Assembly: GCF_003432075.1 (NCBI RefSeq)
Contig: NZ_QWBU01000004.1
Location: forward strand, 310,001-374,000
Length of the DNA: 64,000 nt
Reading direction: 5' to 3'
DNA from: Shinella sp. WSJ-2
GTDB taxonomy: Bacteria > Pseudomonadota > Alphaproteobacteria > Rhizobiales > Rhizobiaceae
Shown one piece after another: positions 16,079 to 35,242 of the stretch (the stretch's first letter is position 1; each line of letters opens with the position of its first letter). Both the position numbers and the translations under genes were made by a program. Below the pieces are notes generated by a model, which saw nothing but the letters and a program-made list of their open reading frames with translations, searched no databases and was not told the DNA's origin.

Positions 16079-16080
16079 GG

Positions 16081-18117: not shown

Positions 18118-18127
18118 GGAAATATCC

Positions 18128-20235: not shown

Positions 20236-20610
20236 ATGAAGCTGCTGATCCTTTTGCCACTCGCCGTTGCCGCTTTCGCTGGCAGCGCTTTTGCCGCCGA
20301 ACCTTTCAAGACGGTCAAGACCGACAAGGGCGAGGTTCTCGCCGGGGACAAGGGCATGACGCTCTATACGTTCAAGAAGGACGAGAAGGGCGAATCCTAC
20401 TGCTACGACAAATGCGCCGCCAACTGGCCGCCGGCCATCGCCGCTTCCGATGCGAAGGCGGAAGGCGCATACTCGCTCGTCACCCGCAAGGATGGCGCCA
20501 AACAATGGGCCAAGGATGGCATGCCGCTCTACTACTGGATCAAGGATAAGAAGCAAGGCGACGCGACCGGCGACGGCATGAACGGCGTCTGGAATGTCGC
20601 CAAGCCCTGA
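20236..20610 (+). CDS. Small secreted protein, COG4315 / PF03640 repeat family
   Basis: A 124-aa exported protein with a signal peptide at residues 1-20 (cleavage after FAA). The mature part holds two copies of the PF03640 'secreted repeat' pattern: GMTLYTFKKDEKGESYCYDKCAANWPP and, later, GMPLYYWIKDKKQGDATGDG, each joining a hydrophobic-aromatic strand to a charged turn. The two cysteines of CYDKC are typical. Function of the family is unknown. Its end overlaps the ECF sigma gene by 17 bp, so the two are probably co-translated, and the protein may be an effector or target of that sigma/anti-sigma pair. Confidence 0.85.
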   Translation: MKLLILLPLAVAAFAGSAFAAEPFKTVKTDKGEVLAGDKGMTLYTFKKDEKGESYCYDKCAANWPPAIAASDAKAEGAYSLVTRKDGAKQWAKDGMPLYYWIKDKKQGDATGDGMNGVWNVAKP

Positions 20611-21963: not shown

Positions 21964-23241
21964 TTACGGCCGGAACGTATAGGTCGCAATCGACTCCGGC
22001 TTCATCTCGATGGAGAAGCCCGGCAGAGACGGCGGCATATAGGCGGCATTCTCGATGCGGCAGGGATCGAGGAAATGCTCGTGCAGGTGGTCGACATATT
22101 CGATCACGCGACCGTCCTTGGTGCCCGACACGGCGATATAGTCGATCATCGAGAGATGCTGGACATATTCGCAGAGCCCGACGCCGCCGGCATGGGGCCA
22201 GACCGGCAGGCCGTATTTCGCGGCCATCAGCAGCACGGCCAGCACCTCGTTGAGACCGCCCATGCGACAGGAATCGATCTGCACGATGTCGATCGCGCCA
22301 CCGGCGATCATCTGCTTGAAGACGATGCGGTTCTGGCACATTTCGCCGGTCGCCACCTTTACGGGATGGATCGCGTTACGGATCGCCTTGTGGCCGGCAA
22401 TATCGTCCGGGCTCGTCGGCTCCTCGATGAAGAACGGCTTGTAGGGCTGCAATTCCTTCACCCAGTCGATCGCCTGGCCGACCTCCCAGATCTGGTTGGC
22501 GTCGATCATCATGGTGCGGTCGTCGCCGATCACCTCGCGGGCGATGCGCAGGCGCCGTTTGTCGTCTTCGAGGTCACGGCCGACCTTCATCTTGATATGG
22601 GTAAAACCCTGATCGACCGCCTCCTGGCAGAGACGGCGCAGCTTCTCGTCGTCATAGCCGAGCCAGCCGGCCGAGGTCGTGTAGCAGGCGTAACCTTCCT
22701 TCTCGAGCGTCGCGATGCGCGCCGCTTTTCCCGCTTCGGCCTTCTTCAGGATGGCCAGCGCCTCCTCCGGCGTCAGCGCGTCGGTGAGGTAACGGAAGTC
22801 GATGATATCGAGGATTTCCTCCGCGCTCATCTCGGCGACGAGGCGCCAGACCGGCTTGCCGGCCTGCTTGGCGAGCAGGTCCCAGACCGCATTGACCACC
22901 GCGCCGGTCGCGAGATGCATGGCGCCCTTATCCGGGCCGATCCAGCGCAGCTGGCTGTCACTCGTCACATGGCGCCAGAAGCGGCCGGGATTTTCGCGCA
23001 CCCAGTCCAGATCGAGGCCGACGACGAGATGTTTCATCGCATCGATCGCCGCGCAGCAGATCTCGTTGCCACGACCGATGGTGAAGGTGAGGCCGTGGCC
23101 CTCCAGCCCCGCCTCATCCGTGCCGAGCACGACATAGGCGGCCGAATAATCCGGATCGGGGTTCATGGCATCCGAGCCGTCGAGGCTCTGCGAGGTGGGA
23201 AAGCGCAGGTCGATGGAGCGGAGGCTGGTGATCTTGGTCAT
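21964..23241 (-). CDS. L-fuconate dehydratase (enolase superfamily)
   Basis: A 425-aa mandelate-racemase-type enzyme expected to dehydrate L-fuconate to 2-keto-3-deoxy-L-fuconate. The N-terminal capping domain (SLDGSDAMNPDPDYSAAYVV, GHGLTFTIGRGNEICCAAID) is characteristic of fuconate dehydratase. In the barrel, the KxK base is in HIKMKVG, metal ligands are in MIDANQIW, FFIEEPTSPDD and VATGEMCQNR, and the His base is in VWPHAGGVGLCEYVQH. It is the last gene of the ten-gene operon that starts with the binding protein at 31360. Related sugar acids are possible substrates. Confidence 0.9.
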   Translation of the reverse strand: MTKITSLRSIDLRFPTSQSLDGSDAMNPDPDYSAAYVVLGTDEAGLEGHGLTFTIGRGNEICCAAIDAMKHLVVGLDLDWVRENPGRFWRHVTSDSQLRWIGPDKGAMHLATGAVVNAVWDLLAKQAGKPVWRLVAEMSAEEILDIIDFRYLTDALTPEEALAILKKAEAGKAARIATLEKEGYACYTTSAGWLGYDDEKLRRLCQEAVDQGFTHIKMKVGRDLEDDKRRLRIAREVIGDDRTMMIDANQIWEVGQAIDWVKELQPYKPFFIEEPTSPDDIAGHKAIRNAIHPVKVATGEMCQNRIVFKQMIAGGAIDIVQIDSCRMGGLNEVLAVLLMAAKYGLPVWPHAGGVGLCEYVQHLSMIDYIAVSGTKDGRVIEYVDHLHEHFLDPCRIENAAYMPPSLPGFSIEMKPESIATYTFRP

Positions 23242-23303
23242 GGAAGCGGCCCTTGGAAATGGTCGGATTGGCCGTCGACGCAAGGACGACGGCCGTTGAT
23301 CGG

Positions 23304-24038
23304 TCAGATGGTCCAGCCGCCGTCGATGGCGTAGGCCTGGCCCGTCGTATAGGTGGCGCCGGCGAGATAGACGGCGAGGTCGGCGATTTCTTCCGGCGTG
23401 CCGATCCGGCCGATCGGCTGGCGGGCGATGAAGGCGGCGCGTGCGGTCTCGAAATCGCCCTGCGCGCGCAGGCGGTCCTGCAGCGAGGGGCTTTCGACCG
23501 TGCCGGGGCAGATCGCGTTGCAGCGGATGCCCTGGGCGACATAGTCGGCGGCGACGGACTTTGTGAGGCCGACGACGGCCGCCTTGGTGATCGTGTAGGC
23601 GGCGCGGTTCGGCACGCCCTTCATGCTGGAAGCGACGGAGGCCATGTTGATGATGGCGCCGTCCTTCTTCTCCAGCATCGCGGGCAGCACGGCGCGGATC
23701 ATGCGCACCATCGCGCGCACATTGAGATCGAAGGCGAAGTCGAGATCCTTGTCCGCCATCTCGAGGATCGAGCCGGCATGCACGAAGCCCGCGCAGTTGA
23801 ACAGCACGTCAAACGGTCCGGTCGCGGAGACCACGCGGTTGACGGCGTCCGCATCGAGCACGTCGAGCACGTAGGTTTCGATATTGGCCTCGGTCGCGAG
23901 GCTCTTCAGCGCTTCGGCATTGATGTCAGTCGCAATGACCTTGGCGCCGGCGCGGGCGAAGGCCAGCGCGCTCGCCCGGCCGATCCCCTGGCCGGCGGCG
24001 GTGAGGAGGACACGCTTGTTTTCGAGGGAAAGGCTCAT
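23304..24038 (-). CDS. SDR dehydrogenase, probable 2-keto-3-deoxy-L-fuconate dehydrogenase
   Basis: A 244-aa short-chain dehydrogenase. It has TAAGQGIGRA near residues 13-22, NCAGFVHAGSILEM, catalytic Ser in NMASVASSMKG, Tyr/Lys in RAAYTITKAA, and the tail YTTGQAYAIDGGWTI. The sequence style (GVPNRAAYTITKAAVVGLTKSVAADYV, GIRCNAICPGTVESPSL) is that of the BDH2/KDF-dehydrogenase group. Placed 62 bp before L-fuconate dehydratase, it should oxidise 2-keto-3-deoxy-L-fuconate to the 2,4-diketo acid with NAD+. A hydrolase for the last step is not seen in the window. Confidence 0.85.
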   Translation of the reverse strand: MSLSLENKRVLLTAAGQGIGRASALAFARAGAKVIATDINAEALKSLATEANIETYVLDVLDADAVNRVVSATGPFDVLFNCAGFVHAGSILEMADKDLDFAFDLNVRAMVRMIRAVLPAMLEKKDGAIINMASVASSMKGVPNRAAYTITKAAVVGLTKSVAADYVAQGIRCNAICPGTVESPSLQDRLRAQGDFETARAAFIARQPIGRIGTPEEIADLAVYLAGATYTTGQAYAIDGGWTI

Positions 24039-24059
24039 GGTTGCTCCTTGCGTAGGGCG

Positions 24060-24509
24060 TCAGGCGCTCGGACGGCGCTCGACGACATAGATATGGTCGG
24101 CGGCGAGGACGACCTCGCCCTTCTGGTTGATGACCTCGGTGCGCTCGATGACGCGACCGGAGCCAGCGCGTTTCGGATCGTCCTCCTTGGCCGATATCGT
24201 CACGCGGGTGTGAATCGTATCGCCAATGAAGACGGGTCTGACAAAACGCATCCTGTCATAGCCGTAGGAAAAGGCGACCGGATTGATGACGCTCGCCGTC
24301 AGGCCGACGCCGATGGAAAAGACCATGGTGCCGTGCGCGATGCGCTGGCCGAACGGCTGCGTCTTCATGAACTCGGCATCCATGTGGTGCGGGAAGAAAT
24401 CACCGGTATGGCCGGCATGCACGACGAAATCCGTCTCGGTGATCGTGCGCCCGCTCGTCCTGCGCCCCTCACCGATCTCGTAGTCCTCGAAATATTTGAC
24501 CTGTTCCAT
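24060..24509 (-). CDS. MaoC-family dehydratase (first copy)
   Basis: A 149-aa single hot-dog-fold protein of the MaoC/R-specific enoyl-CoA hydratase group. The catalytic region [20 protein letters not shown] holds the expected Asp and His. [13 protein letters not shown] and [19 protein letters not shown] are family features. It closely resembles a second MaoC protein at 32373, sharing the block FSYGYDR(M/L)RF(V/I)(R/K)PVFIGDTI. MaoC proteins act on CoA thioesters, which is not part of textbook L-fucose oxidation, so its presence inside this operon suggests an unusual step. It may act on a non-CoA substrate instead. Confidence 0.85.
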
Positions 24510-24522
24510 CTGCTGTTCCTGT

Positions 24523-25593
24523 TCAGGGTCGCACGGCAAGCGGTGTGACGGGGGCAGCACTGGAGACATAGGCGGCCTCGACGAGCGCCATGGTCATCCA
24601 GGCATCCTCGACCGAGGAGACAAGTTCGGCGTCTTCGCCGGCAACGAAACGCTGGAGATTGGCCATGCGGCCGACAAAGGCATCCGGGAACCACGTGCCC
24701 TGAAGCGGCACCGCCACCCAGCCTTCGCCGCCCTTCGGGTAGATTTCGAGAATATCCGGCTCGCCACGCGGATAGTCGAGATTGACGCCGAGCTGAAGAT
24801 AGGCCGCACCCTCGGTGCCCGAAACGCGGAACTCGCAGGCCTGATGACGGCGGCCGAATTTGTGGTCGTGGTTGATCGACAGCGCACAGCGAACGCGGTC
24901 GCCGTAGTCGAGAATCGCGGTGGTGCGCGTCTGCGCCATCTTGTGGTTCGGATGGCCGATCGACTTGGCATGCACGCCCTGAGGATCGCCGAGTATCTGG
25001 CGGATGGCGTCGAGATAGTGGATGGAGTGCATGGCGATCTCGATGCGCGGCAGGCCTTCGAGGAAGGACCAGAGTTCCCACGGCGTATCGAGCGCCAGAT
25101 AGACGTCAAAATCGACGACCTCGCCGAGCAGGCCCTTGGCGATCGCATCCTTCAATGCCAATAGCATCGGCGCGAAGCGCAGCTGGAAATTGACGGCCGC
25201 CTTGAGTTTCTTGTCACGGCAGATGCGCAGGATTTCCGTCGCTGCGGCAAGATCGGAGCCCATCGGTTTTTGGATCAACGCCGCCGCACCGTCCGGGAGA
25301 GCAGCTAGCACTTTCGCATGGGCCGCCGGCGGCGTGGCAAGATCGAAGATCGCGCCTTCGACCGACGCTGCTTCCTCGACGGTGCGATAGGCTGCGACGC
25401 CCCATTTTTCGGCCAATGCCTTGGCCTTGTCGTGATCGGGATCATAGACCCCGGCAATCGGGAAACCGCCCTTGCGATAGGCCGGATAATGCGCGTCGCC
25501 GACAATCGAACCGGCGCCGAAGGTGACGATCGGGCGGGGATTTGACGGGAGGGGCCAGGACTGGGCCAGTGATGTCGGGGCGAAATCAGGCAT
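24523..25593 (-). CDS. Gfo/Idh/MocA-family oxidoreductase
   Basis: A 356-aa NAD(P)-dependent sugar dehydrogenase. The Rossmann N-terminus reads [20 protein letters not shown] (about 22-41). The family EKP motif appears as [11 protein letters not shown], with Gln instead of Glu before the Lys. The C-terminal substrate domain carries a [13 protein letters not shown] helix with the likely catalytic His. It could be the missing sugar dehydrogenase that makes the aldonolactone or aldonate. The first 8 bp overlap the mutarotase end, so the two are translationally coupled. Confidence 0.85.
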
Positions 25594-25915
25594 GGAAAAA
25601 GACCTCTTCCATGCCGGCCCACCACTCGCCTTCCTTGCGGGTCTCAAGCGGCGCCTGGCAGGGCATGCAGACGGCCCACCATTCCTGCGTCTTCGGGTCG
25701 GCGGCCATCTTCGCCATATCGGCGGCATAGTCGGTGCCGTGATATTCGAAGAAGGAGAACAGCAGGTTCTCCGGTTCCTTCAGGAAGATCGAATAGTTCC
25801 GGATATTGCACGCCGAAATCATCGACAGCACGTCCGGCCAGACCGCGGCATGCAGCCGCTTGTACTCTTCGATCTTTTCCGGCTTGACGCCGATGACCAT
25901 GCCGATGCGCTGCAT
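25586..25915 (-). CDS. L-rhamnose/L-fucose mutarotase family protein
   Basis: A 109-aa protein of the RhaM/FucM family (PF05336). It opens with RIGMVIGVKPEKIEEYKRLH, containing the active-site His in RLHAAVWPDVL. ISACNIRNYSIFLKEPENLLF follows, and it ends with [13 protein letters not shown]. These enzymes interconvert the alpha and beta anomers of 6-deoxy-hexoses, so this gene is good evidence that the operon handles a 6-deoxy sugar such as L-fucose or L-rhamnose. It sits 3 nt after the MR/MLE gene and overlaps the oxidoreductase gene. Confidence 0.88.
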   Translation of the reverse strand: MQRIGMVIGVKPEKIEEYKRLHAAVWPDVLSMISACNIRNYSIFLKEPENLLFSFFEYHGTDYAADMAKMAADPKTQEWWAVCMPCQAPLETRKEGEWWAGMEEVFFHA

Positions 25916-25918
25916 GTC

Positions 25919-27037
25919 TCAGGCTCCCTTGCGGATTTCGCGCTCGAACTCGCCAATCGAGCGGGCGCGGATGGCGTCCCAGTCCCAATCAATGCCGAGG
26001 CCCGGCACCGTCGGCGCGAGCGCCATGCCGTTCTCGATCTTCAGGCGCGAGGTGGTGATGTCGTCGAGCTGCGGGATGTATTCGACATATTTGCCGTTCT
26101 GCACCGCACAGGTCAGGCTGACATGCAGCTCCATCAGGAAATGCGGGCAGACCGGCATGTCGAAGGCCTCCGCCGCATGCGCCACCTTGAGCCAGGGCGT
26201 GATGCCGCCGATACGGCCAGCATCGACCTGCACGATGGAGCAGGCGCCCTTCTGCATATATTCGCGGAAATGACGGATCGAATAGAGGGATTCTCCGATA
26301 GCGATCGGCGTCGATGTGGACTGGTTGAGGCGCACATGGCCGTCGATGTCGTCGGCCGGCAGCGGCTCCTCGATCCAGCCGAGATCGAGATCGCGCAGGC
26401 GCTCCGCCCGGCGGATCGCCTCGTCGATGGTAAAACCCTGGTTGGCGTCGGTCATGATCTCATAGCCATCGCCGACCGCCTTGCGGACGGCCGAGAGGCG
26501 CGCAACATCCTCGGAACCATGCGGCTTGCCGATCTTCACCTTCGATCCGGTAAAGCCTTGTGCCTTGGCGGCCAGCGCATCCTCGACCAGCGCTTCGACC
26601 GGAATATGCAACCAGCCGCCCTCGGTCGTGTAGAGCGGGCAGCGGTCCTTGGCCCCGCCGGCGAGCTTCCAGAGCGGCAGGTTCTGCTTGCGGGCGCGCA
26701 GGTCCCAAAGTGCTGTATCGATGGCGGCCAGCGCAATCGAGGTGATGGCGCCGATCGTCGTGGCGTGGGTTGAGAATTCCAACTCGTGCCAGATCGCCTC
26801 GATCCGGTCGGCATCGCGGCCGATGATACGGGGCACGAGATGGTCGGCAAGCAGCCGCATCACGGATGAACCGCCCGTGCCGATCGTATAGCTGTAGCCC
26901 GTGCCGACAGCACCGTCGCTGTCGGTGATGATGACAAGCGGCGTTTCCTGCGAAACGAAACTCTGGATGGCATCGGTGCGCTCGACCTTCGGGCGAAGGT
27001 CGACCATTTTCAGTTCGACGCGTTCGATCTTCGCCAT
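25919..27037 (-). CDS. Mandelate racemase/muconate lactonizing enzyme family protein
   Basis: A 372-aa enolase-superfamily enzyme distinct from the fuconate dehydratase in this operon. It has the capping domain, a KxK base in GSKVKIGK, metal ligands in IMTDANQGF, LGWIEEPLPADD and IAIGESLYS, and a His base in VCPHFLMELHV. It therefore keeps the mandelate-racemase subgroup catalytic set. The substrate is not clear; acid-sugar dehydration or epimerisation is expected. Two different MR-group enzymes in one operon suggest that more than one sugar acid is processed. Confidence 0.85.
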   Translation of the reverse strand: MAKIERVELKMVDLRPKVERTDAIQSFVSQETPLVIITDSDGAVGTGYSYTIGTGGSSVMRLLADHLVPRIIGRDADRIEAIWHELEFSTHATTIGAITSIALAAIDTALWDLRARKQNLPLWKLAGGAKDRCPLYTTEGGWLHIPVEALVEDALAAKAQGFTGSKVKIGKPHGSEDVARLSAVRKAVGDGYEIMTDANQGFTIDEAIRRAERLRDLDLGWIEEPLPADDIDGHVRLNQSTSTPIAIGESLYSIRHFREYMQKGACSIVQVDAGRIGGITPWLKVAHAAEAFDMPVCPHFLMELHVSLTCAVQNGKYVEYIPQLDDITTSRLKIENGMALAPTVPGLGIDWDWDAIRARSIGEFEREIRKGA

Positions 27038-27038
27038 G

Positions 27039-28136
27039 TCAGCCCCTCAGCGTGCGGCCGCTTTCGCGGTCGAAGAGATGCGCCTGGGACAGGTCGAAGC
27101 AGAAGGGCAGCGCCTCGCCCGGTGAGAGCCGTCGCGGATTCAGCATGCGGCCCACCCATTCGGCACCAGCAAAATCGGAGAAGACAAGTGTTTCATTGCC
27201 GAGCGGTTCCGTCAGGATGACGCGCAGGTCCTGCTTGTGCACATCGGCGTCTTCGCCGGAATGAATGCCATGACCGGCGGGGTAGAGATCGTCCGGACGC
27301 AGGCCGAAGGTCACCTTCTGACCCGCCGTCACGCGGTCCCTGAAGCGGGCCGGCAGCGGCAGGCGGTCACCGTTGGCAAAAACCACCTGACCATCCGCAA
27401 TCTCGGCATCCTTGAGGTTCATCGGCGGCGAACCAATGAAGCCGGCGACGAATTTCGACTTGGGCCGCTGGAAGACATCCTCCGGTGTGCCGACCTGCTC
27501 GATATAACCATCGCGCATGATGACGATGCGGTCGGCGAGCGTCATCGCCTCGACCTGGTCGTGCGTGACATAGATGACGGTCGATTGCACCTTGGCATGC
27601 AGCTTCTTGATCTCGACGCGCATCTGGGTTCGCAGTTTTGCATCGAGGTTCGACAGCGGCTCGTCGAACAGGAAGACATCCGGCTGGCGCACGATGGCGC
27701 GGCCCATGGCGACGCGCTGGCGCTGGCCGCCGGAAAGCTGCGAGGGACGGCGGTCGAGCAGATGCGTGAGGTCGAGCGTCTTGGCCGCCTCTTCCACCTG
27801 TGGCGCGATATCCTCCGGCTTCTGGCCCGCGATCTTCAGCGAGAAGCCCATGTTCTCGCGCACCGTCATATGCGGATAGAGCGCATAGGACTGGAACACC
27901 ATGGCGAGGTTGCGGGCACGCGGCGGCAGATCGTTGACCACGCGGCCGCCGATCTTGATGTTGCCGTCGGAGACAGGCTCGAGGCCGGCGATCATGCGCA
28001 GCGTCGTCGACTTGCCGCAGCCGGAAGGGCCGACGAGCGCGATGAATTCGCGGTCCGCCACTTCGAGATCGATGCCGTGCACCACTTCGACCGCGCCGTA
28101 GCGCTTCACCAGTTTTTCAAGGGAAACGGTTGCCAT
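27039..28136 (-). CDS. UgpC/MalK-type ABC transporter ATP-binding protein
   Basis: A 365-aa ABC ATPase of the carbohydrate uptake transporter-1 family. It has Walker [14 protein letters not shown], signature [14 protein letters not shown], Walker [14 protein letters not shown] and switch His in [12 protein letters not shown]-terminal TOBE regulatory domain follows ([12 protein letters not shown]). It powers the two permeases encoded immediately upstream in the same operon; a 1-nt gap separates it from the MR/MLE gene. Confidence 0.95.
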
Positions 28137-28139
28137 GGA

Positions 28140-29006
28140 TTATCCTTTGACTGCGCCGGAGGTGAGGCCGGAAACGAGATGCTTCTGCACGATGAAGGTC
28201 AGGACGAGGGCCGGAATGATCATGATTACCGCCAGCGCGCACATGCCGCGCCAGTCGATGGTGAATTCCGACGTGTAGTCGAGCAGGCCGACCGGCAGGG
28301 TCTTGGAGGTGACGGAACGGGTGAGCTGCGAGGCGAGCGCGAACTCGTTCCACGAGGTGAGGAAGGCGAAGATGCCAGCGGATGCGATGCCGGGGCCGGC
28401 GAGCGGAAACTCCACTTGCCAGAAGGCCTGCCAGCGCGTGCAGCCGTCGATCTGCGCGGCCTCGGCCAAATCCTTCGGCACCTGCCGGAAGAAGCCGTCG
28501 ATCAGCCAGATGGTGAAGGGCACGTTGAGCGCCACATAGGCGGTGATCAGGCCGAAATGCGTGTCGATGATGCCGAGCTTCGAATAGACGAAGAACAGCG
28601 GCAGCGAGAGCGCAATGCCGGGCACCGTGCGCGTCAGCATCAGGCCGAGGAAGATCGACGACTTCGCCTTGAAGCGGAAGCGCGCAAAAGCATACCCGCC
28701 CGCCATGCCAATGGCCAGCGCGATCGCCGTCGAGGTGACCGAGATGATCAGCGAATTACGGAAATATTCGATGATCGGGATACCGCCCTGCCCGACGCCG
28801 GAAAACATCGCGACATAGGCATCGAAGGACAGGTCCTGCGGGATCCAGACCGGCGGCTTCGCCATGATCTCGACCGTCGGGCGGAAGGAGGCGAGCACGA
28901 TCCACAGGCCCGGCAGGCAGATGACCGTCATCGCCAGGAAGAGTCCGATCTTGTGGGCGGCGGAAAGGAGGAGGCCGTTGAAACGGGCTTTAGCGTTCTC
29001 GTTCAT
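28140..29006 (-). CDS. Carbohydrate ABC transporter permease (MalG type)
   Basis: A 288-aa inner-membrane permease with about six membrane helices. The EAA coupling loop reads DLAEAAQIDGCTRWQAFWQVEFPLAGPG, typical of MalG-like subunits. The start at 29004-29006 follows the partner permease by 13 nt; the longer open frame upstream overlaps that gene and is basic and proline-rich. It forms the import channel together with the permease at 29020. Confidence 0.94.
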   Translation of the reverse strand: MNENAKARFNGLLLSAAHKIGLFLAMTVICLPGLWIVLASFRPTVEIMAKPPVWIPQDLSFDAYVAMFSGVGQGGIPIIEYFRNSLIISVTSTAIALAIGMAGGYAFARFRFKAKSSIFLGLMLTRTVPGIALSLPLFFVYSKLGIIDTHFGLITAYVALNVPFTIWLIDGFFRQVPKDLAEAAQIDGCTRWQAFWQVEFPLAGPGIASAGIFAFLTSWNEFALASQLTRSVTSKTLPVGLLDYTSEFTIDWRGMCALAVIMIIPALVLTFIVQKHLVSGLTSGAVKG

Positions 29007-29019
29007 CTGACCACTCCTC

Positions 29020-29916
29020 CTACCATTCGGCGGCGATCTGGGTCCGCGCGGCCGAAAGCTTGCGGAAGAAATAGACGGTGAAGAGTATGGAGAGCAGGAT
29101 CGCGACATAGGCCATAGCATTGGCGAGACCCATGCGGGCATCGGCATAGGCTGTGCGCGAGACGAGCGTCCACAGCAGTTCCGTGCGCTTGGCCGGGCCG
29201 CCATCCGTCATGATCTTCACGATGTCATAGGCGCGGGCGACATCGAGCGATCGAATCGTCATCGCGATATAGGCGAAGGGCATGATGAAGGGCCAGGTGA
29301 CGTAGCGGAACGTCTGCCAGGGCGTGCAGCCGTCGACGCGCGCTGCCTCGATCGGCTCCTTCGGCATGGCAAGCAGGCCGGCGAGGATGAGGATGGCGAA
29401 GACGGAGGTGGACGACCAGATTTCCGCGACGAGGATCGCAAAGAAGGCAAGCGACCCGTCGATCAGCCACGGGATCGCCTGATCCGTGAGGCCGAGCGAT
29501 TGCAGCGCGTTGTTGACGAGGCCGATATTGTCATTGAACATGAACTTGAACTGGAAGCCGACGAGGATCGGCGAGAACATCATGGGGAACATCATGATGG
29601 TGCGCAGCAGCCGCTGACCGCGCGTTGCCTTCTCCACCAGCATGGCAAGGCCAAGGCCGAGCAGCATTTCGACATTCAGCGCCACGGTGAGCAGCAGCAC
29701 GGTTCGGCCGAAGGCCGTCCAGAACTCGATGTCCGTCAGGATGCGCGCATAGTTGCGGAAGCCGATCAGCGTGAAGAGCGATGCCGGCTGCGTCAGTCGG
29801 AACGGTGTGAAGCTCGAATAGAGCGACAGGATGAGCGGAATGATGACGACGGCTGCAAGCACCAGAATGGCGGGCAGCAGAAGCAGAAACGGTGCCGGTG
29901 GCCTCCAGCCTTTCAT
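29020..29916 (-). CDS. Carbohydrate ABC transporter permease (MalF type)
   Basis: A 298-aa inner-membrane permease with six predicted helices, starting with FLLLLPAILVLAAVVIIPLI. The EAA loop EPIEAARVDGCTPWQTFRYVTWPFIMP couples to the ATPase. An AGGAG site precedes the ATG at 29914-29916. It pairs with the next permease in the same operon. Confidence 0.94.
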   Translation of the reverse strand: MKGWRPPAPFLLLLPAILVLAAVVIIPLILSLYSSFTPFRLTQPASLFTLIGFRNYARILTDIEFWTAFGRTVLLLTVALNVEMLLGLGLAMLVEKATRGQRLLRTIMMFPMMFSPILVGFQFKFMFNDNIGLVNNALQSLGLTDQAIPWLIDGSLAFFAILVAEIWSSTSVFAILILAGLLAMPKEPIEAARVDGCTPWQTFRYVTWPFIMPFAYIAMTIRSLDVARAYDIVKIMTDGGPAKRTELLWTLVSRTAYADARMGLANAMAYVAILLSILFTVYFFRKLSAARTQIAAEW

Positions 29917-30011
29917 ATCGGCTTCTCCTGTCTTCACGAATGCAAGGAAAACCGCGCCTGCCGAAATCGGCGGCGTTCTCTCGTTTTCCGAAATGTCACT
30001 AGGGGTGGCAA

Positions 30012-30034
30012 GTGGCGCCGCAACGCGGCGCCAC
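30012..30034 (-). promoter_or_regulatory. Intercistronic hairpin after the binding-protein gene
   Basis: A perfect 10-bp stem (GTGGCGCCGC at 30012-30021, GCGGCGCCAC at 30025-30034) with a 3-nt loop. It lies 9 nt after the binding-protein stop, in the only long gap (127 bp) of the operon. No T-run follows. It mirrors the hairpin at 9735-9764 in the ribitol operon, so it probably protects the binding-protein message or attenuates transcription into the membrane genes. Confidence 0.65.
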
Positions 30035-30043
30035 CGGATAGGC

Positions 30044-31360
30044 TCAGAGCGAGCCGGCGTCTTCGAGAATCTGCGTCGCTTTGGCAGCGGCGGCATCCAG
30101 CGCCTCCTTGGAGGTCTTGTCGCCGAGGATGGCGGCTTGAAGCTCAGGATAGACGGCGTTGGAGATTTCGATCCACGATGCCGTCTGCGGCACCGCGAAG
30201 GCGTGCTTTGCGGCTTCCTGGAAGGCGCTCAGGACTTCCTTGCGATAGGGATCGCTTTCAGCCTGCTTGATGTTGTATTCCCAAACGGCCGTGCGCGTCG
30301 GCAGCGGACCTGCGGCGGATTCCAGCTTCTGACTGTCCTCGTTGGTGAGGAACCAGACGAGCGAGGCCGCCGCCTCCTTGTTGGCGCAGCTTTCCGTGAC
30401 CGAGAAGCCGTGATGACCCGACCAGCCGGTGCGCTTGCCGGAAGAGCCGGCCGGCTGCACCTTCACGCCGACATTGCCGGCGACCTTGGACGACTTCGGA
30501 TCGTTGAAGAAGCTCGCCCAGCCAGGCCAGTCGAGATTGACCGCGATGGTGCCCGAGGCGAACCCCTGGCCGAGGTCGTCCCAGAGATAGTTGGTCGTGC
30601 CGGCCGGAACGGCCTTCGCCTTATAAAGGTTCACGAACCAGTCGAGCGCGCGCACACCGGCTTCCGAATTGAAGGCGGGCTTGCCGTCGGCATCGAGATA
30701 TTCGCCGCCTTCGGCGACCAGCATCTCATAGAAGCGGCCGTTGATCGCCTCTTCCTTGCCGGCATATTGCGTGCCGTAGAAATCCGGCGGGCTGGAGAAG
30801 AAGATCGCCTGGTCGGTGACCTGCTGCCAGGTGTCCGGCGGCGCGAGATCGTAGCCGTACTTTTCCTTGAACGCCGCCTTCTTGGCATCGTCCTGATAGA
30901 GGCTCTTCTGGTAGTAGAGCGCCGATACGTCGAACTGCGCGCGCGGCAGCATGACCAGCTTGCCGCCGAGCGTCGAGGACGCGATGTTGGCTGGCACGAA
31001 GGCGTCGATCTCTTCCTTCGGCAGGAGCGCGTTCAGATCGGTGTAGATATCCGGGTACTGCGGGGCGAAGGACGAATGATTCGATCCGACGCACCAGGTG
31101 ATGTTGCCGGTCGCGATGTCCGACTTGATCTCCTTGTCCAGCTCGAAATGGTTCTTCTTCGAGAGAACGTTCACCTTCGCGCCGGTCGCCTTTTCCCAAT
31201 CGGCAATGCGCGCGTAGAGCGCCTCGTACTGCTGACCGCCGATGAGCTTCGCATCGATGGTGACGCCATCGAACTTGCCGGGCAGATCGGCTGCGAGCGC
31301 AGACCCCGCCCACGCGCAGATCACGGCACCGGCGGCAACGCCGGCTAGAAATCTCGTCAT
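30044..31360 (-). CDS. Carbohydrate ABC transporter substrate-binding protein
   Basis: A 438-aa extracellular solute-binding protein (family 1). The signal peptide MTRFLAGVAAGAVICAWAGS continues to ALAA, with cleavage near residue 23. The mature domain includes NHFELDKEIKSDIATGNITW, a hinge region and LDWPGWASFFNDP. The ATG at 31358-31360 has an excellent GGAGGAG site. As first gene of the leftward operon, it should capture the sugar or sugar acid degraded by the downstream enzymes. Its promoter region is shared with the divergent IclR regulator. Confidence 0.94.
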   Translation of the reverse strand: MTRFLAGVAAGAVICAWAGSALAADLPGKFDGVTIDAKLIGGQQYEALYARIADWEKATGAKVNVLSKKNHFELDKEIKSDIATGNITWCVGSNHSSFAPQYPDIYTDLNALLPKEEIDAFVPANIASSTLGGKLVMLPRAQFDVSALYYQKSLYQDDAKKAAFKEKYGYDLAPPDTWQQVTDQAIFFSSPPDFYGTQYAGKEEAINGRFYEMLVAEGGEYLDADGKPAFNSEAGVRALDWFVNLYKAKAVPAGTTNYLWDDLGQGFASGTIAVNLDWPGWASFFNDPKSSKVAGNVGVKVQPAGSSGKRTGWSGHHGFSVTESCANKEAAASLVWFLTNEDSQKLESAAGPLPTRTAVWEYNIKQAESDPYRKEVLSAFQEAAKHAFAVPQTASWIEISNAVYPELQAAILGDKTSKEALDAAAAKATQILEDAGSL

Positions 31361-31408
31361 CTTCTCCTCCCAAGTGGCTTTTCGCCAGCCCTTACCAATA
31401 AGAGCTTC

Positions 31409-31422
31409 ATTCATATACAAAC
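31409..31422. promoter_or_regulatory. Possible IclR operator half-conserved site (sugar-acid operon promoter)
   Basis: ATTCATATACAAAC fits the left half and centre of the ATTC-N2-AT-N2-GAAT pattern found at three other places in this locus, with two mismatches in the right arm. It lies about 50 bp upstream of the binding-protein ATG, in the divergent promoter region. Confidence 0.4.
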
Positions 31423-31480
31423 CATTTATTCATCCGTCGTCAAGTGATAACTGAAAACTCCCAATTGTCATGTGTGACTT

Positions 31481-31494
31481 ATGCGTATATGAAA
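31481..31494. promoter_or_regulatory. Possible IclR operator upstream of iclR
   Basis: ATGCGTATATGAAA matches ATTC-N2-AT-N2-GAAT with one mismatch per arm. It ends 24 bp before the proposed GTG start of the IclR gene, which is a good position for autoregulation. Confidence 0.45.
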
Positions 31495-31518
31495 TTGCTT
31501 ATTCACAGGGGATGGCGC

Positions 31519-32310
31519 GTGTCAGAAGACGAAAACGATCGCTACAGGGCGCCGGCGCTCGACAAGGGCCTGGATATCCTCGAACTTCTCGCCGCCGTGG
31601 ATGGCGGGTTGACCCAGGCAGAGATTGCCAAGCGGCTCGACCGCAGCCCGAACGAATTCTACCGGATGCTCGATCGCCTGGTGAAACGTGGCTATGTCAC
31701 GCGCATCGACGGCGACCGTTTTTCGCTCACGCTCAAGCTCTTCGGCCTCGCCCAGCTCCATGCCCCGGTGCGACGCCTCGTCTCCTTCGCGGTTCCCCTG
31801 ATGCGCGAGCTTGCTGAGACCTCGCGGCAGGCCAACCAGCTCGTCGTGTTCGACCGCGGCAATCCCGTCGTCATCGCCCAGCAGGAAGCGCCCGGTTACT
31901 GGGGCATTTCCATCCGCGTCGGCTCACGCATCAGTCTATTCGAAACCGGCTCCGGCCACGCTTTGCTGGCCTTCCGGTCGCCGCAGGAGCGCATGCGCAT
32001 GATCGCCGAAAATGTCGGCAGCGGCGGCGAGGATGGACGCGTGACGCCGGAATTCCTGGCGCGCCTCGACCTCATTCGCGCGCGCGGTTACGAGATGATG
32101 CCGAGCGCCCAGACGGCCGGCGTCATCAACCTCTCGGCCCCGGTTCTCGGCGCCGATGGCACTGCAATCGCCGCGCTTACCGTGCCCTATATCACGCTGA
32201 TCAATGCGCCGGCGGCGCCGGATATCTCCACGACGATCCAACTGATCAGCGAAACCACCAGCAAGCTTTCCGAAATGACCGGCGCCGACTTCAAGCCGAG
32301 CGACGAGTAA
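31519..32310 (+). CDS. IclR-family transcriptional regulator
   Basis: A 263-aa IclR-type regulator. The N-terminal winged helix starts RAPALDKGLDILELLAAVDG and includes LTQAEIAKRLDRSPNEFYRML. The effector domain follows (GNPVVIAQQEAPG, GSGHALLAF, SAQTAGVINLSAPVLGADGT). The GTG at 31519 was chosen because AGGGGA precedes it by about 7 bp and the protein then begins at the usual distance from the HTH. Upstream in-frame codons lack a ribosome-binding site and would cross the putative operator. It is divergent from the sugar-acid operon and probably its local regulator. Confidence 0.9.
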   Translation: MSEDENDRYRAPALDKGLDILELLAAVDGGLTQAEIAKRLDRSPNEFYRMLDRLVKRGYVTRIDGDRFSLTLKLFGLAQLHAPVRRLVSFAVPLMRELAETSRQANQLVVFDRGNPVVIAQQEAPGYWGISIRVGSRISLFETGSGHALLAFRSPQERMRMIAENVGSGGEDGRVTPEFLARLDLIRARGYEMMPSAQTAGVINLSAPVLGADGTAIAALTVPYITLINAPAAPDISTTIQLISETTSKLSEMTGADFKPSDE

Positions 32311-32324
32311 ATTCGTATTTGAAT
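32311..32324. promoter_or_regulatory. Putative IclR operator before the second maoC gene
   Basis: ATTCGTATTTGAAT is a palindrome of form ATTC-N2-AT-N2-GAAT, located directly after the iclR stop and about 50 bp before the MaoC start. The same pattern occurs at 35228-35241. Exact symmetry of both 4-bp arms supports a dimer-binding site. Confidence 0.55.
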
Positions 32325-32372
32325 AGATCATTCTTATGAGGCATGCTCTCCTCGTTAAGAGGAGCCAGCATC

Positions 32373-32897
32373 ATGTCGACCGTCGGAATCGAAAGCACCC
32401 ATCCCAAAACCATGCCGGAGTCGCATGCGGCACTACCGGTGTGGAATTCGGAAAACTGGTTTTACGAGGATTTCGCGGTCGGCCATAAGATACGCTCGCT
32501 GCGCCGCACGATCTCCGAAGGCGAATCGATGCAGTTCAACGCGCTGGTACTCGACATGCACCCCTATGTCGGCGACCAGATCTTCGCCGAGACGGAGGGC
32601 ATGTTCGGCCGCCGCCTCGTGGCGGGTGCCTTCGTGTTTTCGGCCGGGCTCGGACTTGTGGCGACCAACTGCGTCAACGCCTTTTCATATGGCTATGACC
32701 GCCTGCGCTTCATCAAGCCGGTCTTCATCGGCGACACGATTTACACGATCCGCACCAATCTCGACAAACAGCCGAAATATGACGAACTCGGCCTCATCCG
32801 CGCGAGCTATGAGGTCTTCAAGGGCGAAGGCGAACTGGTGCTCTATTGCGAGCACATCCAGACCGTCAAATACCGGGACGGCAAACCGCAGGCGTAG
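32373..32897 (+). CDS. MaoC-family dehydratase (second copy)
   Basis: A 174-aa hot-dog-fold protein related to the MaoC protein at 24060. Shared blocks include [20 protein letters not shown]. This copy has a ~30-residue N-terminal extension and [16 protein letters not shown] where the first copy has [16 protein letters not shown], so the catalytic Asp/His arrangement looks altered. An AGGAG site supports the ATG at 32373; an earlier ATG at 32343 lacks one. It follows iclR after 62 bp and a putative operator, and its end lies 9 bp from the convergent binding-protein-like gene. Confidence 0.85.
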
Positions 32898-32906
32898 GAG
32901 CGCGCC

Positions 32907-34043
32907 CTACCGAAAGCTCTTCACGAAGAGATTGTTGAGATCGGCGACGGCTTTCGCGGCCGGCTCCTGACTCGTCAAGGCCTGGTTTATGCGTTGCGAC
33001 GCTGCCTCCTGGAACGGCATGTATCCGTCATGGCGTGGTCGCAGCCAGGCGCCTTCCAACGTATTGCGGGTGTTTCGGTAGAAGCCGAGCGTGGCGGCGT
33101 TGGCCGCCTCGTCCTCCCACCCTGCGGCATGACCCGGCTGGCCGCCGGAGCGCCAATAGCGATCAGCCTGCACCGCCCCGCCGGCAATCCAGTACGCAAA
33201 ATCGATGGCGGCCTCGCGGTTTTCCGAGAAGGCAGAGACGGCGATGCCCGTACCGCCAAGCGCCGAGCCTACAGGTCCGCCCGCGCCGGCGACCGGCATG
33301 TCGGCAAAGGCGACACGGTTTGCCCGGAAGTCCTGCAGGGAATAGCTGACATAGCCATAGATCAGTGGCGAGACGGTATAGGGCGAACCCGCCTCGCCCA
33401 TACGGTCCAGCACGACGATCGGGTCCATGCCGATGCATGCGGGCTCGACGAGCGCGGCCAGCTCCCGGATCATCTCGATCGCCTGCACGCCGGTTTCAGC
33501 GTCGACGAACGGTCGGTCCCGCTCCACCGAACACGGCCGGCCGAGATTACCGCACAGCGAAAACAGACACATCAGCGAATGCGGCGGGCGTAGCGGCAAC
33601 AGCACCTCCCCGGCTTTTGCCAGGTCGAGGACTTCCGCCCAGGTCGTCGGCGGCGCGGCGAGCCGGTCCGGCCGGAAGGCCAGAACCTGGGTTGCCGCAT
33701 CGATTGGAAAAGCCCATTGGCGGCCCTGCCAATTGTAGCTTGGGAACGATTTGCCAACAGAGCCCTTGGCCAAAGCCGAAAAGCCGGCTTCGCGGCCTGC
33801 CACGTCGAGCGGCGCAAGGCAGTTCTCCGCCGTGATCTGGCCGACATGCGGATGGTCGATCACGATGAGATCGTAGCGGCGGGCAAGCTCCTCGACAGGA
33901 AAGCTCTCGAAATCCTGCAGCGAGCGCTTGTCCCATTCGACGCGAACGCCTGTCCTCTCCAGCCAATCCTCGGAGCATGCGACCATCGGATCGTAACCGC
34001 GCGGATGGCTCCAGGTCATGCCCTTCAGCGTGATGCCGCTCAT
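32907..34043 (-). CDS. Extracellular-solute-binding-protein fold without signal peptide
   Basis: A 378-aa protein resembling family-1 ABC binding proteins (YDLIVIDHPHVGQITAE, QWAFPIDAATQVLAFRPDRL, PPTTWAEVLDLAKAG, FSENREAAIDFAYWIAGG). It begins directly with the first strand (MSGITLKGMTWSHPRGYDP) and has no signal sequence or lipobox. Its start overlaps the stop of the CoA-transferase gene (ATGA), so an upstream exported start is not available without leaving the frame. No permease or ATPase gene is adjacent. It may be a cytoplasmic ligand-binding protein; the function is unknown. Confidence 0.8.
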   Translation of the reverse strand: MSGITLKGMTWSHPRGYDPMVACSEDWLERTGVRVEWDKRSLQDFESFPVEELARRYDLIVIDHPHVGQITAENCLAPLDVAGREAGFSALAKGSVGKSFPSYNWQGRQWAFPIDAATQVLAFRPDRLAAPPTTWAEVLDLAKAGEVLLPLRPPHSLMCLFSLCGNLGRPCSVERDRPFVDAETGVQAIEMIRELAALVEPACIGMDPIVVLDRMGEAGSPYTVSPLIYGYVSYSLQDFRANRVAFADMPVAGAGGPVGSALGGTGIAVSAFSENREAAIDFAYWIAGGAVQADRYWRSGGQPGHAAGWEDEAANAATLGFYRNTRNTLEGAWLRPRHDGYMPFQEAASQRINQALTSQEPAAKAVADLNNLFVKSFR

Positions 34044-35191
34044 GCGAATTCCTCCCGGATGCGCGCGGTATGCTCGCCGATGCGCGGCGCGGCACGGCCG
34101 CCGGACGGCCGCGCACCATCAACGCGGATCGGGCAGCGGGTCGTGCCGATGGTGACATCGTCCTCCCGCGTCACCGTCTGCAGCATGTCGAGGATCTGGA
34201 AGCCTTCGTTCGTCAAAAGCTCCGGCCATTCCAGCACCTTCGAGCACCAGATATCGGCAGGCTCGAGGATGGAGAGCCAATGGTCGACCGTCTCGGTGGC
34301 GATGCGCGCCGCAATGATCTGCTTGATCGTATCGCGCTCGGTAAACCAGGCCTTGGCATCATCGCGGTAGATAGCGAGCGCCTCGAGACCCAGCAGGTCC
34401 TGCAAGCGGCCGATCGGCGTCATGGCGATGGCGAGATAGCCGTCCTTGGCCGGATAGACGCCATAAGGCGCCGAAAGATAGGCGTGCGCGCTGCGGAAAC
34501 CGGAGCGCTTCGGCCGGCGGCCGCCGTCGTTCAGATGCGTGGTCAGCACCTCGAACTGGAAATCGACGAGGCTTTCCAGCAGACTGGTCTGGATATGCGC
34601 ACCCTTGCCCGAAATACCCCGGCGCACGAGCGCAGCGAGGATGCCCTGGCAGGTATTGGCGCCGGCCAGCATGTCGGCAACCGCGAGACCGAAGGGCACC
34701 GGGCCCTGCTGCTCGTCGCCGTTCAGCCACATCAGCCCGGAGCGGGCCTGCGCGAGAAGGTCTTGCCCCGGCCGCATGACCCAGGGCCCTTCCTCACCGT
34801 AACCGCTGATCGAGGCATAGACGATAGCCGGATTGATCGCCTTCACCGCCTCATAATCGAGGCCAAGCCGCTCGATGACGCCGGGCCGGAAATTCTGGAT
34901 AACGACATCCGCAGCACCGATCAGCTTGCGCAGGAAAGCCAGATCCTCGGCATTCTTCAGGTCGATTCCCAGACTTTCCTTGCCGCGATTGATAGCGTGG
35001 AACAGCGTCGAGTCCCCGCCCACTTCGGTATCGCTGAGATAAAGCCGCCGCGAAAGATCGCCGCCGTCGGGCCGCTCGATCTTGATGACGCGGGCGCCAA
35101 GATCGAGCAGCCGCAGCGAGCAATAGGGCCCCGACAGGAACTGGCTCATATCGACGACGGTCAGGCCGGCCAACAGTCCGTTGTCGTCCAT
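34040..35191 (-). CDS. CaiB/BaiF-family CoA-transferase
   Basis: A 383-aa family-III CoA-transferase. It starts with LLAGLTVVDMSQFLSGPYCS and has VIKIERPDGGDLSRR and the catalytic Asp in RPGQDLLAQARSGLMW (about residue 140). GISGKGAHIQTSLLESLVDF and GYLAIAMTPIGRL follow. These enzymes move CoA between acyl-CoA and free carboxylates through an aspartyl-CoA anhydride. It heads a two-gene leftward operon with the signal-less binding protein, and its promoter contains a copy of the palindrome found near iclR. Confidence 0.93.
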   Translation of the reverse strand: MDDNGLLAGLTVVDMSQFLSGPYCSLRLLDLGARVIKIERPDGGDLSRRLYLSDTEVGGDSTLFHAINRGKESLGIDLKNAEDLAFLRKLIGAADVVIQNFRPGVIERLGLDYEAVKAINPAIVYASISGYGEEGPWVMRPGQDLLAQARSGLMWLNGDEQQGPVPFGLAVADMLAGANTCQGILAALVRRGISGKGAHIQTSLLESLVDFQFEVLTTHLNDGGRRPKRSGFRSAHAYLSAPYGVYPAKDGYLAIAMTPIGRLQDLLGLEALAIYRDDAKAWFTERDTIKQIIAARIATETVDHWLSILEPADIWCSKVLEWPELLTNEGFQILDMLQTVTREDDVTIGTTRCPIRVDGARPSGGRAAPRIGEHTARIREEFA

Positions 35192-35226
35192 TTTCTCCCC
35201 CCGCGCCGAACCGAAAAGCGCTATAT

Positions 35227-35242
35227 AATTCCTATGTGAATT
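35227..35242. promoter_or_regulatory. Putative IclR operator upstream of the CoA-transferase operon
   Basis: AATTCCTATGTGAATT is a 16-bp palindrome (AATTC-N2-AT-N2-GAATT), the most symmetric of four related sites in 31.4-35.2 kb. It lies about 36 bp upstream of the CoA-transferase start, overlapping an AT-rich stretch likely to be the promoter. Confidence 0.6.

What the first reader, a model, noticed from the sequence alone, without database searches (positions are those of the whole stretch)
21964..35242. Sugar-acid operon wired to CoA chemistry as one putative IclR regulon
The leftward operon looks like oxidative 6-deoxy-sugar catabolism (mutarotase, L-fuconate dehydratase, KDF dehydrogenase, a second MR-group enzyme). 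But it also contains a MaoC protein. The adjoining units add a second MaoC paralogue, a CaiB/BaiF CoA-transferase and a signal-less binding protein. Known L-fucose oxidation uses no CoA thioester. No lactonase or 2,4-diketo-3-deoxy-fuconate hydrolase is seen in the window. The set may define a different ending to the pathway through an acyl-CoA.
Basis: partly seen in the sequence, partly recalled or inferred. Interest (0 to 1): 0.7.

Follow-up and report, generated by a model that had tools for sequence, protein, structure and literature searches.

The report
CoA module in sugar catabolism cluster
A soil bacterium's deoxy-sugar breakdown genes travel with a tightly conserved trio (a CoA-transferase, a sugar-binding-type protein that stays inside the cell, and a CoA hydratase), which suggests that some sugar acids are processed as CoA thioesters although the final steps of the pathway look ordinary.

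Summary
In detail: 21964-35191 encodes a divergent sugar-acid cluster with two MaoC proteins, a family III CoA-transferase (CaiB) and a signal-less binding protein (SBPc). The co-occurrence test passes: in 121 sampled family members CaiB and SBPc orthologues share 26 genomes, none has CaiB alone, one has SBPc alone; MaoC1 follows nearly the same set. Two genomes without them keep truncated MaoC1. The motif TATRTGAA occurs three times in the window, all at this cluster's two promoters, which fits one regulon. The 'different ending' is not supported: lactonase and/or FAH-hydrolase genes lie in 18 of 25 orthologous clusters and homologues of both elsewhere in this genome. What is unexplained is the module itself: CaiB + cytosolic SBP-fold protein + CoA hydratase (MaoC or crotonase), recurring in varied sugar clusters; ten keyword searches gave me no description of it. 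At least two crotonase-type operons show no recognised aldonate dehydratase. Best reading: carnitine-type chemistry on a sugar acid, CoA transfer then dehydration or hydration at C2-C3, with SBPc as substrate-binding partner. Chemistry and substrate are inferred, not shown.

The parts
21964..23241 (-). FucD: L-fuconate-dehydratase-type enolase-superfamily enzyme (FucC of the non-phosphorylating route)
   Evidence: Pfam MR_MLE; PDB 4ip4 725 bits, 2hne L-fuconate dehydratase 582 bits
23304..24038 (-). SDR, probable 2-keto-3-deoxy-fuconate 4-dehydrogenase (FucF)
   Evidence: adh_short_C2; role inferred from position beside FAH/FucD and the pathway in PMC11199699 (passages)
24060..24509 (-). MaoC1, CoA hydratase with intact hydratase-2 dyad (GDFFPHHMD)
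   Evidence: Pfam MaoC; PDB 4ffu 271 bits; D/H dyad in 86 of 86 matches (>=60% identity) that cover it, 1 more did not
24523..25593 (-). Gfo/Idh/MocA dehydrogenase, candidate sugar 1-dehydrogenase
   Evidence: Pfam GFO_IDH_MocA; present in 25 of 25 module clusters
25586..25915 (-). L-rhamnose/L-fucose-type mutarotase
   Evidence: ORF found; relatives annotated L-rhamnose mutarotase
25919..27037 (-). MR1: second MR-group enzyme; best solved matches 3,6-anhydro-L-galactonate cycloisomerase (255 bits) and L-talarate/galactarate dehydratase (218 bits)
27039..28136 (-). UgpC/MalK-type ABC ATPase
28140..29006 (-). CUT1 permease (MalG-like)
29020..29916 (-). CUT1 permease (MalF-like)
   Evidence: BPD_transp_1; synteny
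30044..31360 (-). SBP1: periplasmic sugar-binding protein with signal peptide
   Evidence: no Pfam hit at E<=0.001; N-terminus read; relatives annotated sugar ABC transporter substrate-binding protein
31410..31417 (-). putative IclR operator half-site TATATGAA
   Evidence: TATRTGAA in 68 of 89 IclR/SBP1 intergenic regions
31486..31493 (+). putative IclR operator half-site TATATGAA
31444..32310 (+). IclR-family regulator (true start uncertain, perhaps 31489 or 31519)
   Evidence: IclR_C and HTH_IclR
32373..32897 (+). MaoC2: MaoC paralogue whose catalytic-position His is Val (DMHPYVGD)
   Evidence: Pfam; D/H/V pattern in 76 of 76 matches (>=60% identity) that cover it, 4 more did not
32907..34043 (-). 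SBPc: cytosolic (signal-less) maltose-type binding-protein fold
   Evidence: SBP_bac_8; fold match to sugar-binding SBPs; 13 annotated homologues all start within 10 residues of the first motif
34040..35191 (-). CaiB/BaiF family III CoA-transferase
   Evidence: CoA_transf_3 333 bits; Asp173 in 137 of 137 matches (>=34% identity) that cover it, 2 more did not
35233..35240 (+). putative IclR operator TATGTGAA upstream of CaiB-SBPc
   Evidence: TATRTGAA in 91 of 106 regions upstream of CaiB or of MaoC2-CaiB

Best explanation
The cluster is a two-part catabolic locus. Part one is the known non-phosphorylating L-fucose/L-fuconate route (mutarotase, dehydrogenase, lactonase, FucD, SDR, FAH hydrolase); homologues of the lactonase and hydrolase sit elsewhere in this genome. 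Part two is a CoA module (CaiB, SBPc, MaoC1, optionally MaoC2) that in the 25 clusters counted always comes with the Gfo enzyme and nearly always with the CUT1 transporter and mutarotase. Proposed working: a sugar taken up by the CUT1 transporter is oxidised to its acid; SBPc, which stays in the cytosol, holds the sugar acid for CaiB; CaiB moves CoA onto it from another acyl-CoA; MaoC1 eliminates (or adds) water across C2-C3 of the 3-hydroxyacyl-CoA, made easy by the thioester; CaiB then passes the CoA to the next molecule. The product joins the 2-keto-3-deoxy-acid route. This is the CaiB/CaiD carnitine logic (recalled) applied to a sugar acid. Shown: the genes, conserved catalytic residues of MaoC1 and CaiB, near-strict co-inheritance, absence of a signal peptide, the shared promoter motif. 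Inferred: substrate, direction, SBPc-CaiB contact, product.
For: Co-inheritance in 121 genomes: CaiB/SBPc 26 together, 0 CaiB-only, 1 SBPc-only, 94 neither; CaiB/MaoC1 25/1/1/94. CaiB, SBPc, MaoC1 and Gfo are each in 25 of 25 clusters of genomes with a full CaiB orthologue. G071 and G016, without CaiB and SBPc orthologues, keep 76-82-residue MaoC1 remnants between IclR and the SDR. CaiB lies within 400 bp of SBPc in 128 of 132 SBPc places and a CoA hydratase is on the locus in 124 of 132. The hydratase is MaoC in some clusters and crotonase, a different fold, in others, with the same CaiB-SBPc pair, so the constant is CoA-hydratase chemistry, not one protein family. Crotonase-type operons L065 and L175 have no unassigned stretch over 450 bp and no match to my MR, GD_AH or UxuA references, yet encode dehydrogenases and an FAH-family enzyme with weak similarity (73 bits) to 2-keto-3-deoxy-arabinonate dehydratase. 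MaoC1 dyad 86/86, CaiB Asp 137/137.
Against: In fucose-type clusters a conventional dehydratase (FucD, or SAF+GD_AH in G046) is present, so L-fuconate itself does not need the module; it must serve another sugar acid or step. Seven of 26 CaiB genomes lack FucD and 26 of 45 FucD genomes lack CaiB, so the link to fuconate is loose. Other crotonase-type loci do have a dehydratase-family gene near: an MR gene on the other strand in L183, MR-like genes in L185 and L188, a mannonate-dehydratase-like gene beside SBPc in L192. One SBPc (L181, 33% identity) sits in a sugar cluster with no CaiB and no hydratase found, so SBPc may act without CoA chemistry. Two genomes without the module (G033, G066) have MaoC proteins 51-54% identical to MaoC1. 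No CoA ligase, thiolase or lyase was found among the cluster's genes. The SBPc model is moderate (pLDDT 70.7; best PDB matches TM about 0.6-0.67, rmsd 7-9 A).
Confidence: 0.45

Rival explanations
1. One reading: the pathway ends differently, with CoA-transferase and MaoC replacing the lactonase/hydrolase end.
For: No lactonase or FAH homologue in the 64 kb window; CoA genes linked to the cluster. Seven of 25 orthologous clusters, this one included, show neither gene in the stretch I held.
Against: Lactonase in 17, FAH in 12, at least one in 18 and both in 11 of 25 orthologous clusters, beside the CoA module. This genome has FAH at C2:10444-11277 (67% identity) and the lactonase homologue at C25:356065-356895 (62%). 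FAH homologues are common (107 of 121 genomes at E<=1e-60), so presence of FAH alone is weak evidence; the lactonase is more specific (>=56% identity in 24 of 25 module genomes and 13 of the other 96, counted by hand).
Confidence: 0.06
2. The CoA module handles an acyl group or side product (for example the acid esterified to a plant deoxy-sugar conjugate, or a lactate-related acid), not the sugar acid; SBPc is a cytosolic sensor or trap.
For: The closest characterised CaiB models act on dicarboxylates: succinate-glutarate and mesaconate CoA-transferase at 218 and 209 bits, both far below their cut-offs. SBPc also occurs without CaiB.
Against: The module recurs with sugar oxidation genes and different sugar transporters across several families; I saw no constant esterase, ligase or lyase. 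SBPc resembles sugar-binding proteins. CaiB is within 400 bp of SBPc in 128 of 132 places.
Confidence: 0.25
3. The CoA module epimerises a sugar acid at C2/C3 (dehydration and rehydration through the CoA ester), turning a non-fuco 6-deoxy acid into L-fuconate for FucD.
For: Explains why FucD and the module coexist; two MaoC paralogues in 14 of 121 genomes; MR1 is related to talarate/galactarate enzymes.
Against: MaoC2 lacks the hydratase His and is absent from 12 of 26 CaiB genomes. Does not explain the crotonase-type operons without an aldonate dehydratase.
Confidence: 0.15
4. CaiB, SBPc and MaoC belong to an unrelated pathway that merely sits next door and is co-inherited by linkage.
For: Linked genes on plasmids are co-inherited; 145 plasmid records match SBPc.
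Against: MaoC1 lies inside the sugar operon while CaiB-SBPc is a separate unit, on another contig in G050 (L049 and L050), yet they share the same genomes. Order is rearranged among loci (L041, L045, L046 put mutarotase, Gfo, CaiB, SBPc and MaoC1 on one strand in that order). Both units carry the same promoter motif.
Confidence: 0.09

Closest known systems
Non-phosphorylating L-fucose pathway, route 3 (FucM, A, B, C, F, G; passages of PMC11199699 seen)
   Same: FucD, SDR and mutarotase in the window; lactonase and FAH families in relatives' clusters and elsewhere in this genome
   Different: Extra MR1, Gfo/Idh/MocA enzyme, CUT1 transporter and a CoA module that the passages I read do not mention
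Carnitine CaiB-CaiD (CoA-transferase plus crotonase dehydrating a 3-hydroxy acid as CoA ester; recalled)
   Same: Family III CoA-transferase with conserved Asp paired with a CoA hydratase in one locus
   Different: Substrate presumably a sugar acid; a cytosolic SBP-fold partner; MaoC in place of crotonase in many loci
4ffu_A (PDB molecule name 'oxidase'), a MaoC-family protein
   Same: MaoC1 is its close homologue (271 bits over 147 residues)
   Different: I saw only the entry name; no function is known to me
Maltose/trehalose/sulfoquinovoside-type solute-binding proteins (SBP_bac_1/8)
   Same: Predicted fold (4rya, 7qhv and 2gh9 are the three best matches)
   Different: No signal peptide, coupled to a CoA-transferase gene, own motifs TW..PRG, DHPHxG and RPR in the 12 aligned homologues (the last two are not found in L181)

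Membership tests
Non-phosphorylating L-fucose pathway | L-fuconate dehydratase (FucC) | tested here: met
   582 bits to L-fuconate dehydratase 2hne; activity untested
Non-phosphorylating L-fucose pathway | Mutarotase (FucM) | tested here: met
   25586-25915, relatives annotated L-rhamnose mutarotase
Non-phosphorylating L-fucose pathway | L-fucose 1-dehydrogenase (FucA) | tested here: inconclusive
   Only a Gfo/Idh/MocA candidate in the cluster; substrate unknown
Non-phosphorylating L-fucose pathway | L-fucono-1,5-lactonase (FucB, amidohydrolase) | tested here: inconclusive
   Not in the window; 62% homologue of the relatives' in-cluster gene at C25:356065-356895, not beside other cluster genes
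Non-phosphorylating L-fucose pathway | 2,4-diketo-3-deoxy-acid hydrolase (FucG, FAH) | tested here: inconclusive
   C2:10444-11277, 404 bits to NF053535, below its 500-bit cut-off; the in-cluster relative scores 425, also below
CaiB/BaiF family III CoA-transferase | Family match and catalytic Asp (its role recalled) | tested here: met
   333 bits, cut-off 23.3; Asp173 in 137 of 137 covering matches
CaiB/BaiF family III CoA-transferase | CoA transfer activity | not testable with these tools
   needs assay
MaoC hydratase-2 (MaoC1) | Asp/His dyad (recalled) | tested here: met
   86 of 86 covering matches
MaoC hydratase-2 (MaoC2) | Asp/His dyad (recalled) | tested here: not met
   His position is Val in 76 of 76 covering matches
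Periplasmic ABC solute-binding protein (SBPc) | SBP fold | tested here: met
   SBP_bac_8 match; Foldseek probability 1.00 to sugar SBPs, TM about 0.6; model pLDDT 70.7
Periplasmic ABC solute-binding protein (SBPc) | Export signal | tested here: not met
   start set by the overlap with CaiB; none in 13 annotated homologues
Carnitine-type CaiB-CaiD system | Crotonase partner dehydrating the CoA ester | tested here: inconclusive
   Crotonase present in paralogous loci; MaoC here; chemistry untested

The most novel reading that the evidence does not exclude
CaiB-SBPc-(MaoC or crotonase) is a new, widespread enzyme system: a CoA-dependent sugar-acid dehydratase (or epimerase) in which a solute-binding protein has been kept in the cytosol as the substrate-recruiting subunit of a CoA-transferase. 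In some crotonase-type operons it replaces the aldonate dehydratase altogether.
Probability: 0.35. Interest if true: 0.82.

Novelty: new variant of a known kind. Interest (0 to 1): 0.62.

Why it matters
Oxidative sugar catabolism is taught as CoA-free until pyruvate. A CoA-transferase, a cytosolic binding protein and a CoA hydratase that are inherited together with sugar operons would add a thioester strategy to it, give a function to an unexplained cytosolic binding-protein family, and fill missing dehydratase steps in some operons. It can be tested directly in the laboratory strain S. meliloti 1021, whose pSymB carries CaiB (82%) and SBPc (64%) orthologues near the IclR, lactonase and transporter genes (locus L017).

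Tried and rejected
Different pathway ending: rejected, see rivals. MaoC1/MaoC2 heterodimer as obligatory: rejected, MaoC2 is missing from 12 of 26 CaiB genomes. SBPc as a recent copy of the cluster's own SBP1: no meaningful similarity (E 0.053 over 13 residues). MR1 as a necessary partner: no MR1 in 5 of 25 clusters; G084 also lacks the CUT1 transporter and mutarotase. Literature, ten searches: 21, 27, 28, 43 and 93 returned no papers; others returned listings, none of which, nor the passages read, describes this module. Five of the ten (21, 27, 43, 92, 93) were aimed at it, and the library holds only open-licence papers. I recall that S. meliloti SM_b21103-SM_b21113 was assigned to L-fucose from mutant fitness data; searches did not let me verify it. 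PMC3454389 (passages) reports that another S. meliloti binding protein, SMc02774, binds L-fucose with nanomolar affinity, so this CUT1 transporter need not be for L-fucose.

Orthologue cut-offs (CaiB >=50%, SBPc >=45%, MaoC1 >=65%, MaoC2 >=64% identity) were set by me after seeing the lists. In one search MaoC2 shows 15 because a 45% cut-off there let one MaoC1 through; 14 is the right number. TATRTGAA was chosen after looking at the intergenic regions, so its enrichment is not an independent test; for the window alone 5 of 100 shuffles also had at least 3 matches, so the weight lies in the positions and the conservation. IlvD-type dehydratases were not among my tblastn references.
Full report
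WHAT IS THERE. The window belongs to a 5.14 Mb genome in 29 contigs of Rhizobiaceae type; its nearest named relatives by SBPc identity are Shinella lacus (90%) and Sinorhizobium sp. RAC02 (86%). The finding's genes are all present. The leftward operon runs from a periplasmic sugar-binding protein through two CUT1 permeases, an ATPase, MR1, a mutarotase, a Gfo/Idh/MocA enzyme, MaoC1 and an SDR to an L-fuconate-dehydratase-type enzyme. IclR and MaoC2 run rightward. A signal-less binding protein (SBPc) and a CaiB-type CoA-transferase run leftward again, overlapping by four bases.

THE SUGAR SIDE IS KNOWN CHEMISTRY. FucD scores 582 bits against solved L-fuconate dehydratase. The published non-phosphorylating L-fucose route needs mutarotase, dehydrogenase, lactonase, dehydratase, 4-dehydrogenase and hydrolase (PMC11199699, passages). 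Lactonase and FAH hydrolase are absent from the window. Of the 25 clusters whose genomes have a full CaiB orthologue (this one included), 17 hold a lactonase and 12 an FAH gene in the stretch I fetched; 18 hold at least one, 11 both, 7 neither. All 25 genomes have a homologue of each somewhere. For FAH that says little, since 107 of 121 genomes have one at E<=1e-60; for the lactonase it says more, since 24 of 25 module genomes and 13 of the other 96 have one at 56% identity or more (counted by hand). This genome has FAH at C2:10444-11277 (67% identity) and the lactonase homologue at C25:356065-356895 (62%). The FAH hit is below the curated cut-off of its model (404 against 500 bits), as is the in-cluster relative (425). 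Neither gene sits with other cluster genes here.

THE COA GENES ARE REALLY LINKED. Among 121 genomes of the family, SBPc at 45% identity or more is in 27 and CaiB at 50% or more in 25, plus a contig-edge fragment in G089. All 26 CaiB genomes have SBPc; one genome, G054, has SBPc with only a distant CaiB (36%) nearby. MaoC1 at 65% or more is in 26, of which 25 are CaiB genomes; G033 and G066 have MaoC proteins 51-54% identical without the module. FucD is in 45 genomes, 19 of them CaiB genomes. The trio is bound to itself more tightly than to fuconate dehydratase. Gfo is in 25 of 25 module clusters, mutarotase and CUT1 transporter in 24, MR1 in 20. G071 and G016 keep IclR, lactonase, SDR, FAH and FucD, but their locus lacks the transporter, MR1, mutarotase, Gfo and the front of MaoC1, and they have no CaiB or SBPc orthologue: the remnant suggests that MaoC1 was lost together with its partners. 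MaoC2 is in 14 of 121 genomes, all among the 26 with CaiB. In the 80 named loci returned by the genome scan (the best 80 of at least 540 relatives), CaiB is in 79, IclR in 72, lactonase in 66, MaoC2 in 59 and MaoC1 in 49; the 10-kb flanks cut many clusters short.

ACTIVE SITES. MaoC1 keeps the hydratase-2 Asp/His pair in 86 of 86 matches that cover it (1 more did not). MaoC2 has Val at the His position in 76 of 76 (4 more did not cover it) and carries another invariant His, so it is probably not an ordinary hydratase. CaiB keeps its Asp in 137 of 137 (2 did not cover it). The roles of these residues are recalled from the families.

A WIDER MODULE. In a spread sample of 398 genomes of the phylum, 18 have SBPc (9 of them in the window's own family, 3 outside the class), at 23 places; CaiB is on the 4-kb locus in 20 of 23 (once with a crotonase between), and in one of the other three, fetched with longer flanks, it lies 6.5 kb away. 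Over all 132 SBPc places for which I held flanking DNA, repeats included, CaiB is within 400 bp in 128 and a CoA hydratase on the locus in 124. Of the four without CaiB so close, three (L032, L048, L192) have one further off and L181 has none; of the eight without hydratase, three are short contigs (L031, L089, L139), L049 and L109 are one genome whose MaoC1 is on another contig, and L131, L144 and L181 are unexplained. The partners change: MaoC in fucose-type clusters and in Croceibacterium and Methylobacterium, crotonase in Pseudosulfitobacter, Sinorhizobium, Pararhizobium, and this genome's own second copy on contig C14. Two loci outside the class have SBPc-CaiB-CaiB-crotonase in a row (L185, L186). 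The Microvirga locus L181 has SBPc in a sugar cluster with neither CaiB nor hydratase, which counts against a purely CoA-linked role.

WHY A SUGAR-ACID REACTION. The companion genes are sugar dehydrogenases, lactonases, epimerases and sugar transporters. In the crotonase-type operons of L065 (to 17.1 kb) and L175 (to 12.0 kb; its upstream end is cut) every stretch over 450 bp is assigned and none matches my MR, GD_AH or UxuA references; IlvD was not among them, but no gap is large enough to hide one. L194 likewise has no such match between 0.6 and 16.4 kb. The genome's own C14 copy has a lactonase as well, though I did not fetch 2 kb of that locus. Their FAH-family enzyme's best solved match is an unnamed FAH protein (9kkt, 384 bits), and next a 2-keto-3-deoxy-D-arabinonate dehydratase (73 bits). 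Oxidation and later steps are thus present and the aldonate dehydratase is missing, where CoA-transferase plus hydratase would fit, as CaiB and CaiD dehydrate carnitine (recalled). Against this, L183, L185, L188 and L192 do have MR- or mannonate-dehydratase-like genes within the stretch, and in fucose-type clusters the conventional dehydratase is present or replaced by SAF+GD_AH (L028; L189, L191, L193). There the module probably serves a second sugar acid or another step. I could not decide which.

SBPc. All 13 annotated homologues checked start within ten residues of the first TW motif, so none, as annotated, carries a classical signal. The predicted fold (pLDDT 70.7, pTM 0.72) matches maltose-, trehalose- and sulfoquinovoside-binding proteins at a TM-score of about 0.6. 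Arg, Asp and His residues invariant among 12 homologues suggest an anionic, sugar-like ligand; that is inference, and L181 lacks two of the motifs.

REGULATION. The motif TATRTGAA occurs three times in 64 kb: twice between IclR and the transporter operon and once upstream of CaiB. Across loci it is in 68 of 89 and 91 of 106 of the two regions, against at most 3 in any of 100 shuffles, and in both regions of 63 of 86 loci. The motif was picked after inspection and the loci are related, so this supports but does not prove one regulon.

VERDICT. The interesting thing is the conserved CaiB-SBPc-hydratase module, for which I found no description in the searches listed under Tried and rejected.

Noticed in passing
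L053 (G000:C14:22001-42000), 9005-16785: Second CaiB-SBPc pair in the same genome, with a crotonase, a CUT2 sugar transporter and an FAH-family enzyme; a beta-propeller lactonase lies upstream (602-1753).
   Followed up: partly
L181 (Microvirga ossetica plasmid), 8992-10164: Signal-less SBP homologue (33% identity) beside two mannonate dehydratases, SMP-30 and SDR genes, with no CoA-transferase: may show the SBP's role without CoA chemistry.
   Followed up: no
window 12804-18336, minus strand: KdpD sensor kinase (Pfam) and a P-type ATPase, probably a kdp potassium-uptake region, next to the cluster.
   Followed up: no
window 20594-21930, plus strand: ECF-type sigma factor (sigma-70 region 2/4 and PhyR sigma-2 matches) overlapping a 257-aa protein with no Pfam hit, perhaps its anti-sigma factor.
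   Followed up: no
window 44394-49730, minus strand: 1778-aa autotransporter-like protein with passenger-associated repeats and an autochaperone domain.
   Followed up: no
L185 10880-13936 and L186 about 10700-13740: SBPc followed by two CaiB genes in tandem and a crotonase, outside the window's class; could be a two-subunit CoA-transferase.
   Followed up: partly
window 32373-32897; L038 14778-15341 and other MaoC2 genes: MaoC2 has a conserved D-x-H-P-Y-V motif in place of the hydratase-2 motif: a possible new activity or a non-catalytic subunit.
   Followed up: partly
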